Shown piece by piece: positions 40,338 to 48,377 of a stretch of DNA of 64,000 bases (positions are counted from its first letter, which is position 1; the number at the start of each line of letters is the position of its first letter). Both the position numbers and the translations under genes were made by a program. The DNA is from Bacteroidota bacterium. Lineage in GTDB: Bacteria > Bacteroidota > Bacteroidia > Cytophagales > Cyclobacteriaceae. The DNA is taken from positions 248,001 to 312,000 of the forward strand of contig JAFDYT010000005.1 in the NCBI GenBank assembly GCA_018266055.1. Reading direction: 5' to 3'. The notes beneath the pieces were generated by a model, which did not search any database, was not told the origin of the DNA, and saw only the letters and a list, made by a program, of their open reading frames with translations.

Positions 40338-40745
40338 TTGAGTTCAAAAGCAAAATTGAGTCTGTACATTGGGCTGATCGTCGTTTTTAGCTTTTACACG
40401 ACGATTGTTTATACTTTAACAGCCAAGCAAGACAGCGTTGATGTCACCGAAGTGATGAAGGGAAAAATGATCTGGCAGGAGAAAAATTGCCTGGCTTGTC
40501 ATCAGATCTACGGACTCGGAGGATTTCTTGGTCCAGATCTTACCAACGTGTATTCAAACCAAACTAAAGGCCCAGCATATATCACTGCCTTTGTAAGAAA
40601 TGGAACGCCAACGATGCCATCCTTTTCGCTCACTGAAAGCGAAATGAATTCGCTCTTGGCTTTTCTGCAACATGTATCGGCATCAGGGCAATCAAATCCG
40701 CAAAGTTTTAAAATTAACGCGAATGGAACCATTGAGGGAAAATGA
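40338..40745 (+). CDS. norC: Membrane-anchored cytochrome c, nitric oxide reductase small subunit (NorC-like)
   Basis: 135 residues. One N-terminal membrane anchor (residues 8-28, LYIGLIVVFSFYTTIVYTL), then a periplasmic class I cytochrome c. Heme is attached at C51-x-x-C54-H55 (NCLACH), the segment GLGGFLGPDLTNVYSN is typical of NorC, and M93 in TPTMPSF is the likely sixth ligand. It would receive electrons and pass them to NorB. Start codon is TTG at 40338; no ATG or GTG occurs before the anchor, so this start is forced. The 3' end overlaps norB by 23 bases. Confidence 0.88.
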   Translation: MSSKAKLSLYIGLIVVFSFYTTIVYTLTAKQDSVDVTEVMKGKMIWQEKNCLACHQIYGLGGFLGPDLTNVYSNQTKGPAYITAFVRNGTPTMPSFSLTESEMNSLLAFLQHVSASGQSNPQSFKINANGTIEGK

Positions 40746-42051
40746 TTCGCGGATTCCGAAGTTGTTTATTGTAGCTGGACTTGGTTTGCTATTTCTTGCC
40801 ATGGCCTTTGGTATTGTAGGGGCGCTACAGTACGTGGTTCCGGGTTTGCTAAAACAATATTTATCATTCGAAAAGGTAAGGCCACTGCATGTTTCTTCTG
40901 CTGTGTTTTGGATCATCTTCGGCGCCATGGGCGGCACGTTGGCTTATCTTCAGCGTTTCGGTGAAAAGCCGTATCGCCCGGGGCTATTGAGATTGCAATT
41001 TTGGATTTTATCGATGGCGGTCATTCTTATCCTCGGTAGTTATTTGGCTGGTATTTTTGGTGGCCGGGAATACTGGGAGTTTCCTCCGCCGTTGGCGATC
41101 TTGATAATCGTGGCCTGGATACTGTATGTCATCAATGTAGTAAGTGCGGTGAAAACCTTACGAGGTCAGCCGGTGTATATCTGGATGTGGATTACCGGCG
41201 CGTTTGGTTTCCTTTTTACGTTTTCAGAATCGTACTTATGGGTGTTCCCATATTTTCAGCAGCACATAGTTCGCGATATGACCGTGCAATGGAAATCATA
41301 CGGCTCGATGGTGGGTTGTTGGAATATGCTGGTGTACGGTCTCGGTCTTTACCTGATGGAAAAAATAAGCAACGATACTTCGTATGCACAATCGCGGATG
41401 GGATTTGCGCTTTTCTTTTTGGGCTTCTTCAACTTGCTGTTCAATTGGAGTCATCACATTTATACACTACCCATTCCACAAGGGATAAAAAATGTGGGCT
41501 ATCTGGTTAGTATGACTGAGTTGTTTATTTTAGGAAGGATCATTTATAAATGGAAAGCGTCGGTCACCACGGCGCAAAAATTTAATCACCTGTTGCCGTT
41601 TCGTTTCTTAATGGCCGCTGATATCTGGGTATTTTTAAATCTCAGTCTTGCGATCCTTATGTCGATCCCTGCGTTCAATGTGTTTACTCATGGCACACAC
41701 ATCACCGTAGCCCACAGCATGGGCACTACTATTGGAATAAACACCATGCTCTTGTTGGCGGTAGCATTTGATGTATTAAACCCGGAACGAAAAGTAATCG
41801 GCACTAACTTGATCATTAAGAGAAGCATTTGGGTCGTGGGAATTTCTCTTTTTGTTTTTCTGAGCTCGCTCGTGTTAGCGGGTGTGCATCGGGCGAAATG
41901 GCAAATGGCTGAAACGCCAGTATCGTTTGGCACGATGATGAATGGAATCACACCTTATTTTGTAGCCGTGACCGTGGCCGGAATAATCATATTTCTCGGC
42001 CTGGCGTTTATTATCCTGGCACTCTTTCGGGTTGTGAAGGGCTCCAGGTAA
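40723..42051 (+). CDS. norB: NorB-like heme-copper oxidase superfamily subunit with altered active site
   Basis: 442 residues from the ATG at 40723 (MEPLRENDSRIPKLFIVAGL), about 12 membrane spans. NorB-like features: GGREYWEFPPP near 113-123 (calcium/heme region), H56 in VRPLHVSSAVFW (low-spin heme ligand), H244-H245 in NWSHHIY (two FeB ligands), and H331 in THGTHITVAHSMG (high-spin heme ligand). Two expected residues are absent: the helix VI His (HFWVEG in cNOR, YGHNAVGF in cbb3) aligns with YGSMVG at 193-198, and the second His of the HxH pair is M333. It most likely reduces NO to N2O, but this is inference given the changes. Overlaps norC. Confidence 0.82.
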   Translation: MEPLRENDSRIPKLFIVAGLGLLFLAMAFGIVGALQYVVPGLLKQYLSFEKVRPLHVSSAVFWIIFGAMGGTLAYLQRFGEKPYRPGLLRLQFWILSMAVILILGSYLAGIFGGREYWEFPPPLAILIIVAWILYVINVVSAVKTLRGQPVYIWMWITGAFGFLFTFSESYLWVFPYFQQHIVRDMTVQWKSYGSMVGCWNMLVYGLGLYLMEKISNDTSYAQSRMGFALFFLGFFNLLFNWSHHIYTLPIPQGIKNVGYLVSMTELFILGRIIYKWKASVTTAQKFNHLLPFRFLMAADIWVFLNLSLAILMSIPAFNVFTHGTHITVAHSMGTTIGINTMLLLAVAFDVLNPERKVIGTNLIIKRSIWVVGISLFVFLSSLVLAGVHRAKWQMAETPVSFGTMMNGITPYFVAVTVAGIIIFLGLAFIILALFRVVKGSR

Positions 42052-45529: not shown

Positions 45530-45622
45530 TCTCTTTAAAACCCATCCAGGGCTTTTTATGAGATTCAGGTGCGGAATATTCACTAAAAAGGAGGATTCTG
45601 ACCTATTAAATCGGTTGTGAAA

Positions 45623-46048
45623 ATGATAACGATAACAAAAATTTTCAGGTTTGAAGCAGCACATGCCATTTACCGGTATCCGGGCAGCTGTGCCAATATT
45701 CACGGGCATTCATACGAACTGCATGTTTCCGTGCGAGCCGAAAGCTCAGCGGAGGGGTACATTCCCGGCATCGGGATTATAATGGATTTTAAAGAGCTAA
45801 AGAATATGGTTCAGCAGAACGCTATTGCCTTGCTCGACCACAAGGTGATTTTATCGAAGGCTTATCTGGCAGAGAAGAAAAATTCATTTTCCGGCGATGA
45901 GCTCACCGTGATGGAGGCTGAACCAACCGCCGAAAATTTGCTTTATTTTATACTAAAATGCATCCAAGGGAAGTTTCCTTCCGATGTCAAAATCACTTCA
46001 ATGAAGTTGTGGGAAACCCGCGACTCCTTTGCCGAATGGTCAGCGTAG
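45623..46048 (+). CDS. queD: 6-carboxytetrahydropterin synthase (QueD/PTPS-like)
   Basis: 141 residues from the ATG at 45623; a GTG at 45617 is an alternative. Zinc ligands H14, H27 and H29 (RFEAAHAI, IHGHSYEL), catalytic C23 in GSCANIHG, an Asp-His pair in ALLDHKVI, and Glu residues in PTAENLLYF and LWETRDSFAEW. The family makes 6-carboxy-tetrahydropterin for queuosine, or tetrahydropterin intermediates. No other queuosine genes are next to it. Its last 9 bases overlap the convergent Rrf2 gene. Confidence 0.9.
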   Translation: MITITKIFRFEAAHAIYRYPGSCANIHGHSYELHVSVRAESSAEGYIPGIGIIMDFKELKNMVQQNAIALLDHKVILSKAYLAEKKNSFSGDELTVMEAEPTAENLLYFILKCIQGKFPSDVKITSMKLWETRDSFAEWSA

Positions 46049-46489
46049 GCGCACCTTGTAGTTTCTCAAGAAAGTCTTTCCCTTCGACAGGTCATTGGCC
46101 AAGTGTTGCAAGGTTTTTTCTTTCATGATTTTGCGCAACCGCTCTTTGTAGGTCTTGATGTCATTATGTATCGGGCACGGAAATTTATCCGAGCATTCTT
46201 TCAATCCAAGTGAACAGGAGTGAAGAATGTTATCACCGTCAATAGCCTTAACAATGGCATTGAGGGCAATGGGTTTTGATCTTGGATCCAGATAAAATCC
46301 TCCGTTAGGTCCTTTCACCGAAGAAATAATTCCTTCGCGGGAAAGGCTTTGGAGAATTTTGGCTGTAAAATGAACTGGAGAATCTATCTCTTTAGCAATC
46401 TCTTTTATCCCTAGTTTAGATCCATCAACACTTTTCATGGAAATATAAAGGGAAGCACGAATGGCATACTCACACGCTTTTGAAAACAT
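46040..46489 (-). CDS. Rrf2-family transcriptional regulator with IscR/NsrR-type Fe-S ligands
   Basis: 149 residues. Winged helix at about 1-70 (MFSKACEYAIRASLYISMKS, IAKEIDSPVHFTAKILQSLS, SVKGPNGGFYLD). The cluster-binding loop holds C92, C99 and C105 with H108 (SCSLGLKECSDKFPCPIH), almost the spacing of IscR (92, 98, 104, 107), so a [2Fe-2S] or [4Fe-4S] cluster is likely. Rrf2 members sense Fe-S supply, redox state or nitric oxide. It lies 61 bases downstream of the 608-residue gene on the same strand and about 4 kb from norCB. Which signal it senses cannot be read directly. Confidence 0.9.
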   Translation of the reverse strand: MFSKACEYAIRASLYISMKSVDGSKLGIKEIAKEIDSPVHFTAKILQSLSREGIISSVKGPNGGFYLDPRSKPIALNAIVKAIDGDNILHSCSLGLKECSDKFPCPIHNDIKTYKERLRKIMKEKTLQHLANDLSKGKTFLRNYKVRLR

Positions 46490-46550: not shown

Positions 46551-48377
46551 TCAGGCTTCGGTCAAAACGTTGTCCTGATGGCTTAAAAATAAAAATTTCA
46601 ACTCGGCCTCGATCTCGTCAAGGTTGTCGGTTAGTTTACTTTTCAAGGCAAAAAACTCCTGATTAACCTCAACTGCAATCCTTCGATAGTAACCGATTCC
46701 TTCCATCAAGTTGTTATAAAAGTTCTCAAGGTAGGTTTTTCGCTTGGTGTCGATGGCGCCTTTGGCCTCTACCAGCAATTCGTTCCAGTATTCTACATAG
46801 AGCTGCAATTCCTTGATAAACATATGGGGACGGTGGGTTCCATGCAAAAGATTGGTGCGACCATAGATGTGATCGAGCATTTTTCGTAGCGATACGATTT
46901 CTGAGAAATAGGCGATGTTGGGGCCCGGGCATACGTTCACCGCTTTACGCTGGCCAAATGGTTTAAGTTTATAGGCGTTTACGGCCGCATTGCTTAAACC
47001 AATGCACAGACATTCTTTATCCAGCACGTCTTTCATCTGCCTCTTAAACTCTTTTTCCGGAAGCCCCATGGCTTTGAGCTGTTCGGTTTTTTGCTTTTGG
47101 TAGGTATGCGAAGCGGTACAAATCGGATCTTTTCCGAATTCGGTATTAGAAACCAGGTATTCTTCAGAACATGGGCTTCCTGGTAGGCCTTGTTCGATTC
47201 TGGAAAACTTTTCTTTTTCGGCCGAAGTACCTTTTAAATAATAGAAACGGACTCCGAGAGGCGAATTTTTGCTTAGAATGACATCTTTTTCCCCTGCTGC
47301 GCATAGCTGATGCAAGGTTGGTTCGTCTACTGTGGTAGCCTCTGGAACGAGCAGAAAGGGCGTTCCCCACCCGGTGCTATCCACTCCGTAGTATGTGCGC
47401 AGAAATTCGTCTTCTTCATGGGTGCCTATTCCTCCTTGCACGGTGATGCGAAGCGCGTGGGGTGCTTCAAAGGTCTTTCTGCCTTTACTTTGAAGGGCCT
47501 GATTGTACATGCTGAATAACGTGTTGGTAAGCTCCTGCTTTTTGGTCTTAAATTCTTCAAGGATGGGACCCATCAAATAACCGTCAGAGGCAAACGCATG
47601 GCCGCCGCAGTTCAATCCTGACTCAATACGGAATTCACTTACCCACAGACCTTTTTTGGCGAGCATTTTTCCCTGGATTAGCGCCGAGCGGTAGTCGGAA
47701 ACTTTGATCACAATCTGCTTTTCAAATTCCCCCTGGCTGTCAGCGTCAAATGCCGTGAGCTTTTCCATGTAATTAAACAATCGTGGATTCATCCCGGCCG
47801 ACAAAATCACCGATGAGTTGCTGAGATTGCTGTTGGCGTACCCGCGCAGTGCCGCCACAGCATCCGATCCATCGTCGATCACTTGCCCGTTTTCATCCAG
47901 ATTATTTTTGTCCAGCTTGGTCATAATGTTTACATCAATACTTCCTGGCTGTATTTCATCCCTCAACCAGTTTTCGAGTTGAAGTTTATCGACCGGATCA
48001 GTCACTTTTTCAAGCTGATTGTAAATACTTTTTAGATTACTTTTCTCGGGAAGCATCTCAAAATATTTATTGATGTCCGAGCCCGCTTCAAATTCAGAAT
48101 TTTTAAGTCGATGGATCTGGTCGTTCACCATGCGGTTGATCAGGTTGAGGTAATCGGTTATTCGCCTGGCGCGGTAGTCAGTCTCCTGATTGGTAATGGG
48201 CACATAGGGTTCTCCACATTGAGCATAATAATGACTACGCATTTTTTCCACCAGGTTATCTTCAATGATGGATACCACAGAGCTGATGCCATACCGGGCA
48301 ACCTTGACAGGTGAGTCGATAGTATAGGCTAAGCCCATGACGGGGATATGAAAAGAGTGCGGTTTTTCGGATTGCAT
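46551..48377 (-). CDS. Uncharacterised FMN/TIM-barrel-like protein with cysteine-rich segment
   Basis: 608 residues, soluble, no signal peptide. The first part, IPVMGLAYTIDSPVKVARYG, followed by SSVVSIIEDNLV, and the middle segments WVSEFRIESGLNCGGHAF, HALRITVQGGIGTHEEDEFL and GWGTPFLLVPEATTVD resemble barrel strands of nitronate monooxygenase or IMP dehydrogenase-type flavin/phosphate-binding enzymes. Between about residues 395 and 490 lie several Cys (GSPCSEEY, DPICTASH, KECLCIGLSN, VNVCPGPN), a possible Fe-S or metal site. The end is helical. I know no characterised member. It heads a two-gene unit with the Rrf2 regulator. TATCTTTA about 35 bases upstream may be its -7 element. Confidence 0.75.
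   Translation of the reverse strand: MQSEKPHSFHIPVMGLAYTIDSPVKVARYGISSVVSIIEDNLVEKMRSHYYAQCGEPYVPITNQETDYRARRITDYLNLINRMVNDQIHRLKNSEFEAGSDINKYFEMLPEKSNLKSIYNQLEKVTDPVDKLQLENWLRDEIQPGSIDVNIMTKLDKNNLDENGQVIDDGSDAVAALRGYANSNLSNSSVILSAGMNPRLFNYMEKLTAFDADSQGEFEKQIVIKVSDYRSALIQGKMLAKKGLWVSEFRIESGLNCGGHAFASDGYLMGPILEEFKTKKQELTNTLFSMYNQALQSKGRKTFEAPHALRITVQGGIGTHEEDEFLRTYYGVDSTGWGTPFLLVPEATTVDEPTLHQLCAAGEKDVILSKNSPLGVRFYYLKGTSAEKEKFSRIEQGLPGSPCSEEYLVSNTEFGKDPICTASHTYQKQKTEQLKAMGLPEKEFKRQMKDVLDKECLCIGLSNAAVNAYKLKPFGQRKAVNVCPGPNIAYFSEIVSLRKMLDHIYGRTNLLHGTHRPHMFIKELQLYVEYWNELLVEAKGAIDTKRKTYLENFYNNLMEGIGYYRRIAVEVNQEFFALKSKLTDNLDEIEAELKFLFLSHQDNVLTEA

What the first reader, a model, noticed from the sequence alone, without database searches (positions are those of the whole stretch)
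40723..42051. NorB-like oxidase subunit lacking a copper/iron-site histidine and a heme histidine
Seen: H56, H244-H245 and H331 are in place, but the helix VI motif that carries one FeB ligand (HFWVEG in cNOR, YGHNAVGF in cbb3 oxidases) reads YGSMVG, and the second His of the helix X HxH motif is Met (AHSMG). The Glu after the helix VI His is absent too. Known: canonical NorB needs three FeB His and bis-His low-spin heme. Inferred: either a divergent NO reductase with a new metal site and His-Met heme, or an enzyme with another substrate. NOR families with altered active sites have been described, and this could belong to one common in Bacteroidota.
Basis: partly seen in the sequence, partly recalled or inferred. 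Interest (0 to 1): 0.75.

Follow-up and report, generated by a model that had tools for sequence, protein, structure and literature searches.

The report
Bacteroidota NO-reductase-like enzyme missing ligand histidines
This gene belongs to a widespread but apparently undescribed family of respiratory enzymes in Bacteroidota that look like nitric oxide reductases with a rebuilt metal centre, and it may be the missing step that turns NO into N2O in many bacteria thought to lack one.

Summary
Gene 40723-42051 encodes a 442-residue heme-copper-oxidase homologue that keeps four of the six signature histidines (H56, H244, H245, H331). The helix VI ligand His is Gly (G194), the catalytic Glu of cNOR is Gly (G198), and the second His of helix X HxH is Met (M333). 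This is not decay: the pattern is fixed in 59 non-identical members (58 Bacteroidota including this one, 1 Parabeggiatoa). The only other invariant His, H323, is shared with cNOR and cbb3. The family forms one clade (100/99) outside cNOR+qNOR+NOD and outside cbb3, beside a NorC-like cytochrome gene (56 of 60 locus rows). It occurs in 77 of 395 genomes of the window's class and tracks nosZ (64 of 77, against 66 of 318 without it). Among genomes without cNOR/qNOR match it tracks nirK (11 of 17 nirK genomes, against 61 of 358 others). I read it as a cytochrome-c-fed NO reductase with His/Met heme b and a rebuilt second metal site. Substrate, metal and ligation are inferred, not measured. No description appeared in the papers searched; the key survey of NOR families was not available.

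The parts
40338..40745 (+). NorC-like membrane-anchored mono-heme cytochrome c (CLACH and MP motifs), presumed electron donor subunit
   Evidence: ORF; Cytochrome_CBB3 / Cytochrom_C; best solved relative NorC of P. aeruginosa cNOR 3o0r_C, E 3e-10; directly upstream in 56 of 60 locus rows
40723..42051 (+). NorB-like heme-copper-oxidase homologue with altered ligand set (P0001); an upstream in-frame ATG at 40672 is also possible
40888..40890 (+). codon of H56, helix II low-spin heme ligand by position (retained)
   Evidence: 56/56 rows
41068..41070 (+). codon of E116 in GREYWE, aligned with the Glu of GREFLE in cNOR (recalled as a Ca2+ ligand)
   Evidence: 57/57 rows; alignment
41302..41304 (+). 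codon of G194, at the place of the helix VI FeB/CuB His
   Evidence: 59/59 Gly; gapless reading against cbb3 and cNOR
41314..41316 (+). codon of G198, at the place of the catalytic Glu of cNOR (E211, recalled number)
   Evidence: 59/59 Gly; gapless reading
41443..41445 (+). codon of N241, one helical turn before H244/H245; candidate extra ligand (speculative)
   Evidence: 58/59; Gly in the cNOR rows and Ala in the cbb3 rows
41452..41457 (+). codons of H244-H245, helix VII metal ligands by position (retained)
   Evidence: 59/59 each
41518..41520 (+). codon of E266, aligned with the helix VIII Glu of cNOR (E280, recalled number)
   Evidence: 59/59
41713..41715 (+). codon of H331, proximal ligand of the catalytic heme by position (retained)
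   Evidence: 58/58
41719..41721 (+). codon of M333, at the place of the second low-spin heme His
   Evidence: 58/58 Met
45617..46048 (+). QueD/PTPS-like gene, recurrent neighbour of the family; role unknown
   Evidence: TIGR03367 77.4 bits, under its cut-off of 89.25; PTPS cluster in 24 of 60 locus rows
46040..46489 (-). Rrf2-family regulator, recurrent neighbour
   Evidence: PF02082; 32 of 60 locus rows
46551..48377 (-). 608-aa protein, recurrent neighbour, no curated family over its cut-off
   Evidence: 17 of 60 locus rows; NCBIfam: one match of 15 bits only; its relative L014:8314-10137 has no Pfam match at 1e-5

Best explanation
A two-subunit, NorC/NorB-like membrane enzyme that most likely reduces NO to N2O with electrons from periplasmic cytochrome c. 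Proposed path: the NorC-like heme c passes electrons to a low-spin heme b held by H56 and M333 (His/Met instead of bis-His), then to a catalytic heme b3 on H331. NO is coupled there with the help of a second metal bound by H244 and H245 but not by the usual helix VI His and Glu, both of which are invariant Gly here. Shown: residues, conservation, predicted fold, NorC-like partner gene, separate clade, co-occurrence. Inferred: heme ligation by M333, presence and nature of the second metal, NO as substrate, electron and proton routes.
For: Fixed residue pattern in 59 members. Confident HCO-type model (pLDDT 87.7, pTM 0.89), TM 0.87 to cbb3 3mk7 (rank 1) and 0.84 to cNOR 3o0r (rank 7). NorC-like partner gene in 56 of 60 locus rows, closest solved relative NorC. 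GREYWE and helix VIII Glu as in cNOR. nosZ in 64 of 77 family genomes against 66 of 318 others, on the same contig in 15 of these 64, within 17 kb in 14. Among 375 genomes without a cNOR/qNOR match, nirK goes with the family (11 of 17 nirK genomes against 61 of 358, p 3e-5). 36 of 60 locus rows carry an Rrf2, RIC, DUF2249, NnrS or truncated-globin gene nearby, 32 of them an Rrf2. A cNOR operon lies beside it in L047/L048 and a NOD-like gene in six fetched loci.
Against: cNOR has, and by recall needs, the residues that are missing here, so a working FeB site is not assured. No activity, spectrum or structure exists. Half of the nosZ genomes (66 of 130) lack the family; of 31 nirK genomes 16 lack it (10 have another NOR match, 6 have none); 13 of 77 family genomes lack nosZ. 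Co-occurrence is not corrected for shared descent. NorQ/NorD, which accompany cNOR, are near it in only 3 of 60 rows. No shared regulatory box was found upstream. Residue distances in the model could not be measured.
Confidence: 0.6

Rival explanations
1. It is an NO-handling enzyme that is not a classical 2NO-to-N2O reductase: for example a heme-b3-only NO or nitroxyl reductase, with no second redox metal because two of its four cNOR-type ligands are gone.
For: Both helix VI ligand positions are invariant Gly; NorQ/NorD are mostly absent from the loci (3 of 60), fitting absence of a non-heme FeB; NO-linked context.
Against: H244-H245 are invariant in 59 of 59 though I know of no other role for them in this fold; the helix VIII Glu is kept; genomes with nirK and nosZ but no cNOR/qNOR match would still need an N2O-forming step.
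Confidence: 0.17
2. It is an oxygen reductase related to cbb3 with relaxed active-site needs.
For: Best structural match is cbb3 (TM 0.87); weak ccoN match (65 bits against a cut-off of 583); an invariant Tyr (Y247, 59/59) stands one residue before the place of the cbb3 helix VII Tyr.
Against: The tree places it outside the three cbb3 rows; no three-His copper site; the very place of the cbb3 helix VII Tyr (recalled role) is Thr in P0001; the partner gene is NorC-like and no CcoO/CcoP gene lies beside it in the window (not searched for elsewhere); the genome has separate A-type and cbb3 oxidases; NO-linked context.
Confidence: 0.08
3. It is an electron-transfer or sensing membrane cytochrome without catalysis that serves denitrification, for example passing electrons to NosZ.
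For: Strong link with nosZ; loss of catalytic ligands.
Against: 66 of 130 nosZ genomes lack it and 13 of 77 family genomes lack nosZ; H331, H244, H245 and E266 are invariant, unexpected for a mere conduit.
Confidence: 0.1
4. It dismutates NO to N2 and O2 like the proposed NO dismutases.
For: Altered ligand set, as in NOD; linked to NOD-like genes (7 of 10 NOD-like genomes carry the family, p 6e-4).
Against: NODs are qNOR-like single chains with His-to-Asn and Glu-to-Gln exchanges and apparently no external electron input; this family has different exchanges and a NorC-like partner gene.
Confidence: 0.05

Closest known systems
cNOR (NorCB, cytochrome-c-dependent NO reductase)
   Same: Two genes, NorC-like then NorB-like; similar predicted fold; HH of helix VII, proximal His of the catalytic heme, GRE(Y/F)xE-type motif and helix VIII Glu
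   Different: No helix VI His or Glu (both Gly), HxH is HxM, outside the 100/100 group of cNOR+qNOR+NOD-like rows, NorQ/NorD rarely near
cbb3 oxidase subunit CcoN
   Same: Closest solved fold (TM 0.87); the VQW stretch of helix VI and the KEYAE-type motif align without gaps
   Different: No three-His CuB, no bis-His low-spin heme, NorC-like instead of CcoO/CcoP gene beside it in the window, outside the three cbb3 rows of the tree
Putative NO dismutase (NOD; qNOR-like)
   Same: An HCO homologue with an altered second-metal site in NO metabolism; genetically linked in several genomes
   Different: NOD changes one His to Asn and a Glu to Gln in a long qNOR-like chain; this family keeps HH and loses the helix VI His and the low-spin heme His
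Described alternative NORs (eNOR, sNOR, gNOR, bNOR, nNOR)
   Same: HCO homologues proposed or shown to reduce NO, with altered active sites
   Different: Reported as related to B-family oxidases, eNOR with a cupredoxin subunit II; this protein is closest to cNOR/cbb3 by sequence and has a NorC-like partner. No direct alignment with them was made.

Membership tests
Heme-copper oxidase superfamily | COX1 profile and 12-helix core | tested here: met
   PF00115 112.5 bits; model with 12 long helices (my count) and Foldseek matches to cbb3 and cNOR
Heme-copper oxidase superfamily | Sextet of six ligand histidines (called a signature in PMC3413370) | tested here: not met
   4 of 6 kept; helix VI His is Gly (59/59), second His of HxH is Met (58/58) (definition from passages)
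cNOR (NorB) | NorC partner encoded together | tested here: met
   56 of 60 locus rows; NorC is the best solved relative of the window's copy
cNOR (NorB) | Helix VI HxWVE motif with FeB His and Glu | tested here: not met
   G194 and G198 in 59 of 59; the 15 cNOR rows have HLWVEG or HLWVEA
cNOR (NorB) | HxH of helix X (catalytic and low-spin heme ligands) | tested here: not met
   HxM in 58 of 58
cNOR (NorB) | Falls within the cNOR clade | tested here: not met
   Outside the 25-row group (15 cNOR, 6 qNOR, 3 NOD-like, 1 unclassed), support 100/100; long branches are flagged there
cNOR (NorB) | NO reductase activity | not testable with these tools
   needs protein
cbb3 oxidase (CcoN) | Curated ccoN profile over cut-off | tested here: not met
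   TIGR00780 65 bits against 583.15
cbb3 oxidase (CcoN) | Three-His CuB site | tested here: not met
   helix VI His is Gly
NO dismutase | One ligand His changed to Asn and catalytic Glu changed to Gln in a qNOR-like chain | tested here: not met
   HH kept 59/59 and helix VIII Glu kept 59/59; 442 aa without the long N-terminal part (definition)
eNOR/sNOR/gNOR/bNOR/nNOR | Relationship to B-family oxidases and their signature residues | tested here: inconclusive
   No member of these was in the tree; no ba3 (B-type) chain up to E = 1 in the sequence search of solved structures, while the fold search lists ba3 from rank 12 on, below cbb3, cNOR and qNOR

The most novel reading that the evidence does not exclude
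An undescribed NO reductase family, the main NOR of many NosZ-bearing Bacteroidota, that works with a His/Met low-spin heme b and a second metal held by only two histidines (with Asn, Met or water, or none at all). To my knowledge it would be the first heme-copper-oxidase homologue with four instead of six ligand histidines shown to be catalytic, and it would fill part of the 'nir and nosZ but no nor' gap in this phylum.
Probability: 0.42. Interest if true: 0.87.

Novelty: new variant of a known kind. Interest (0 to 1): 0.72.

Why it matters
A survey of 61,293 bacterial genomes reports that Bacteroidota supply 53% of the genomes with nosZ but no nir, and that 9% of Bacteroidota with denitrification genes carry nir and nosZ but no nor, using a NOR reference set and removing sequences that lack conserved ligand residues (PMC12569097, passages seen). 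An earlier survey found nor in 17% of 24 nosZ-only and 67% of 24 nirK+nosZ Bacteroidetes (PMC4250227, passages). If this family reduces NO, many organisms now scored as pure N2O sinks would be NO-to-N2 reducers or complete denitrifiers, which changes N2O budgets built from genomes. Chemically it would show that NO coupling in this fold does not need the three-His plus Glu site or a bis-His heme b.

Tried and rejected
Another His as substitute ligand: the only other invariant His of the family is H323, in the HGT loop; cNOR, cbb3 and NOD-like rows have it too, the qNOR rows L114-L116, L125 and L126 do not. H326 is His in 54 of 58; H181, H289 and H389 are not among the columns over 80%. So I see no third FeB His or second heme His by sequence; a structure could still disagree.

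Decay or sequencing error: rejected, the same pattern is fixed in 59 members.

Common regulatory box upstream of the NorC-like gene: FNR/Crp-type and NsrR-type palindromes were little or no more frequent than in base-shuffled controls (56 upstream regions; e.g. FNR-type with up to 2 mismatches 20 against 14.8, NsrR-type 14 against 13.95); negative.

Viral carriage: no relative in viral contigs. Plasmids: 207 records match, none at 60% identity or more; the 30 listed are 22.6-30.7% identical and named nitric-oxide reductase or cbb3-type subunit I, or not annotated. Outside the class: 0 of 61 genomes of other classes of the phylum; the only 2 of 80 in that sample are the window's genome and one of its own family. 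In the gammaproteobacterial sample 1 of 104, the Parabeggiatoa itself, plus two canonical cNORs at about 100 bits. The 84,980-genome scan used exact peptide patterns of P0001, so distant members can have been missed.

Own-genome 'qNOR' as a canonical NOR: rejected, it carries the NOD exchanges (its quinol site was not examined), so I moved the 10 such genomes out of the cNOR/qNOR count (compare).

Caveats of counts: in the 395-genome searches at most 4 (family), 3 (NosZ), 2 (NOR) and 5 (NirK) candidates per genome were scored, so absences are less sure than presences. 13 of 69 pattern-matched stretches were not relatives. 6 of 65 ORFs were dropped as duplicates before the 59-row count, and 5 more rows (L045, L049, L052, L056, L057; partial or in a doubtful frame) before the 54-row alignment A1. 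The 60 locus rows hold one place twice (L004 and L072), and some contigs are cut short; of the 4 rows without a NorC-like gene, L049, L052 and L057 start inside the gene, and in L014 the small ORF upstream was not examined. Of the 56 related loci, six were left out and one more (L011) was not held, giving 49 genomes; these overlap with the 395-genome sample. In the tree L113a is labelled qNOR though it carries HN and FSTLQ.

Literature: ten searches showed no description of this family in their listings; I read passages of five papers, none in full. The NOR-diversity paper by Murali and colleagues is not held, so I could not check it; what I say of it comes from papers that cite it or is recalled.

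Full report
What is there. The frame 40723-42051 (+) encodes a 442-residue membrane protein, P0001, with a COX1 match along residues 11-422 and no curated NCBIfam family over its cut-off. It starts inside the end of a 135-codon gene for a membrane-anchored mono-heme cytochrome c (40338-40745) whose closest solved relative is NorC of cytochrome-c NO reductase, 3o0r_C, E 3e-10. The genome (4.79 Mb) has six COX1-type matches: an A-type and a cbb3 oxidase, a long qNOR-like chain, an NnrS-like protein, P0001 and a paralogue of P0001 (the naming is mine).

Check of the observation. H56, H244, H245 and H331 are present; YGSMVG and AHSMG stand where helix VI and helix X ligands should be. A scan of 84,980 species genomes with peptide patterns of P0001 gave 56 relatives. 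With both own copies and one further genome hit I aligned 59 non-identical ORFs. Invariant among rows with letters: H56 (56/56), G194 and G198 (59/59), H244 and H245 (59/59), E266 (59/59), H323 (59/59), H331 and M333 (58/58). The helix VI stretch reads W-K-[S/V/A]-[Y/N/A]-G-[S/A]-[M/L/I]-[V/I]-G. Read without gaps from the shared W190, G194 takes the place of the ligand His of both cbb3 (VQWWYGHNAVAF) and cNOR (WWVVHLWVEG), and G198 the place of the cNOR Glu. So the six-histidine signature described for this superfamily (PMC3413370, passages) is reduced to four, with Met in one place and Gly in the other. H323 lies in the HGT loop that cNOR and NOD-like rows share, and cbb3 has a His there too, so I do not count it as a spare ligand.

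Fold and place in the family tree. AlphaFold on the 54-row alignment A1 gives mean pLDDT 87.7, pTM 0.89 and 12 long helices by my count. Foldseek ranks cbb3 chains first (3mk7, TM 0.87), cNOR 3o0r seventh (TM 0.84), then qNOR and, lower, ba3 and A-type oxidases. In a tree of 52 rows the 23 sampled members form one group (100/99). The 25 cNOR, qNOR, NOD-like and one unclassed row form another (100/100), with cbb3 and the A-type oxidase apart. The tree warns of long branches, among them the join of this family with the NOR group, so the exact sister group is unsure. By sequence the nearest solved subunits are cNOR and cbb3; no ba3 chain appears up to E = 1. Motifs shared with cNOR are GREYWE, the HGT loop and the helix VIII Glu. 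The roles of these in cNOR (Ca2+ site, proton delivery) and the cNOR residue numbers are recalled.

Genomic company. Over 60 locus rows (one place counted twice), the NorC-like gene is next to it in 56; three of the other four contigs begin inside the gene. An Rrf2 regulator is near in 32, a PTPS/QueD-like gene in 24, a beta-eliminating lyase in 21, a 608-aa protein in 17, RIC (ScdA) in 9, and DUF2249, NnrS and truncated globin in 6, 4 and 4. 36 of 60 have at least one of Rrf2, RIC, DUF2249, NnrS, globin (the names DUF2249 and NnrS are mine, not from a profile search). In L047 and L048 a cNOR operon with RIC, NorQ and NorD lies directly upstream (the cNOR chain of L048 is read as L117). In L010, L013, L014, L024, L025 and L051 a long NOR-like chain lies with its centre within 6 kb; all six lie in genomes whose chain I fetched (L137-L139, L141-L143) and found to carry HN and FSTLQ, the kind of exchanges given for NO dismutase.

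Co-occurrence. In 395 evenly drawn genomes of the window's class (Bacteroidia, by inference from its relatives) the family is in 77 (48 of 196 genera), NosZ of TIGR04246 in 130, 128 of them over the cut-off, NirK in 31, 30 over the cut-off, and a qNOR/cNOR/NOD-like match in 30. Ten of these 30 are NOD-like by sequence. Family and nosZ share 64 genomes (64 of 77 against 66 of 318; odds ratio 18.8, p 2e-24), on the same contig in 15 and within 17 kb in 14. With NOD-like chains set aside, 14 of 31 nirK genomes have a cNOR or qNOR match (4 of these also the family), 11 have the family without one, and 6 have neither. Among genomes without a cNOR/qNOR match the family is in 11 of 17 nirK genomes against 61 of 358 others (p 3e-5), and it is in 7 of 10 NOD-like genomes (p 6e-4). 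The family is not linked with cNOR/qNOR itself (5 of 20, p 0.35). In the 49 genomes of fetched loci, nosZ is over cut-off in 36, NirK over cut-off in 15, NirS in 1, and a qNOR/cNOR/NOD-like match exists in 17, 9 of them NOD-like. None of these tests is corrected for shared descent, and the first look scored only a few candidates per genome.

The window's genome itself has NirK (C7), NosZ (C6), the NOD-like chain (C7), the NnrS-like gene (C7) and two copies of this family, one of them on C7 within 18 kb of the NOD-like gene, and no cNOR or true qNOR among its six COX1-type matches. So if it forms N2O from nitrite by an enzyme of this superfamily, this family is the candidate.

How it probably works. 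The NorC-like heme c hands electrons to a low-spin heme b ligated by H56 and, by position, M333. Met is an ordinary axial ligand and would raise the potential of heme b; cytochrome bd has a His/Met heme b (recalled). The catalytic heme sits on H331. A second metal would be held by H244 and H245; family-specific invariant or near-invariant residues near by in sequence (N241, N237, M264) are candidate partners, but this is a guess without coordinates. Two glycines on helix VI leave room where His and Glu were. The rivals are listed separately; the strongest is a heme-only NO enzyme without a second redox metal.

Known or not. A NOR set in use lists cNOR, qNOR, bNOR, eNOR, gNOR, sNOR and nNOR, and its authors removed sequences lacking conserved ligands (PMC12569097, passages; families also in PMC11388526 and PMC8756737, passages). 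Such a filter would probably discard this family. Ten library searches showed no description of it, but the original survey is not held, so novelty is likely, not proven.

Verdict. A real, strictly conserved, apparently undescribed family with a striking ligand set and a strong genomic link to NO and N2O metabolism; a new variant of a known kind, pending biochemistry.

Noticed in passing
L003:640-3003 (G000:C7:143093-145453) and fetched relatives L112, L113, L128-L143: The genome's long 'qNOR' and its relatives of 40-77% identity (20 chains read, own included) have HN for HH and Gln for the helix VIII Glu, the kind of exchanges given for NO dismutase. In 6 of the 7 of 395 sampled genomes with both, it lies on the same contig as the present family, within 18 kb (positions).
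   Followed up: partly
window:45617-46048 and PTPS genes in 24 of 60 locus rows, e.g. L012, L026, L004: A QueD/PTPS-like gene often follows the NorB-like gene directly on the same strand; no link between pterin or queuosine chemistry and NO reduction is known to me.
   Followed up: no
21 of 60 locus rows, e.g. L044:2799-4178, L043:2801-5582: One or two tandem beta-eliminating lyases (tryptophanase-like) often lie near, mostly upstream of the NorC-like gene and in the same direction.
   Followed up: no
window:46551-48377: A 608-aa protein without a significant curated family (its relative L014:8314-10137 has no Pfam match) recurs in 17 of 60 locus rows, often next to the Rrf2 gene.
   Followed up: partly
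L115 (G108:C1:1042414-1044627): A qNOR-like chain with HLWVEG and HH intact has HGY where relatives have HGH, so the low-spin heme His position is Tyr in this one sequence.
   Followed up: no
G065:C1:1092091-1093904 (genome of L034, Sediminibacterium salmoneum): The nosZ match comes in two open pieces in different stretches, so nosZ may be interrupted in this strain or in its assembly.
   Followed up: no
window:42053-45428: An epimerase-like gene, an acetyltransferase-like gene and a serine palmitoyltransferase gene (NF047600 over cut-off) lie between this gene and the PTPS gene here, but upstream of the NorC-like gene in other loci such as L010, L012 and L013: a block that has moved.
   Followed up: no
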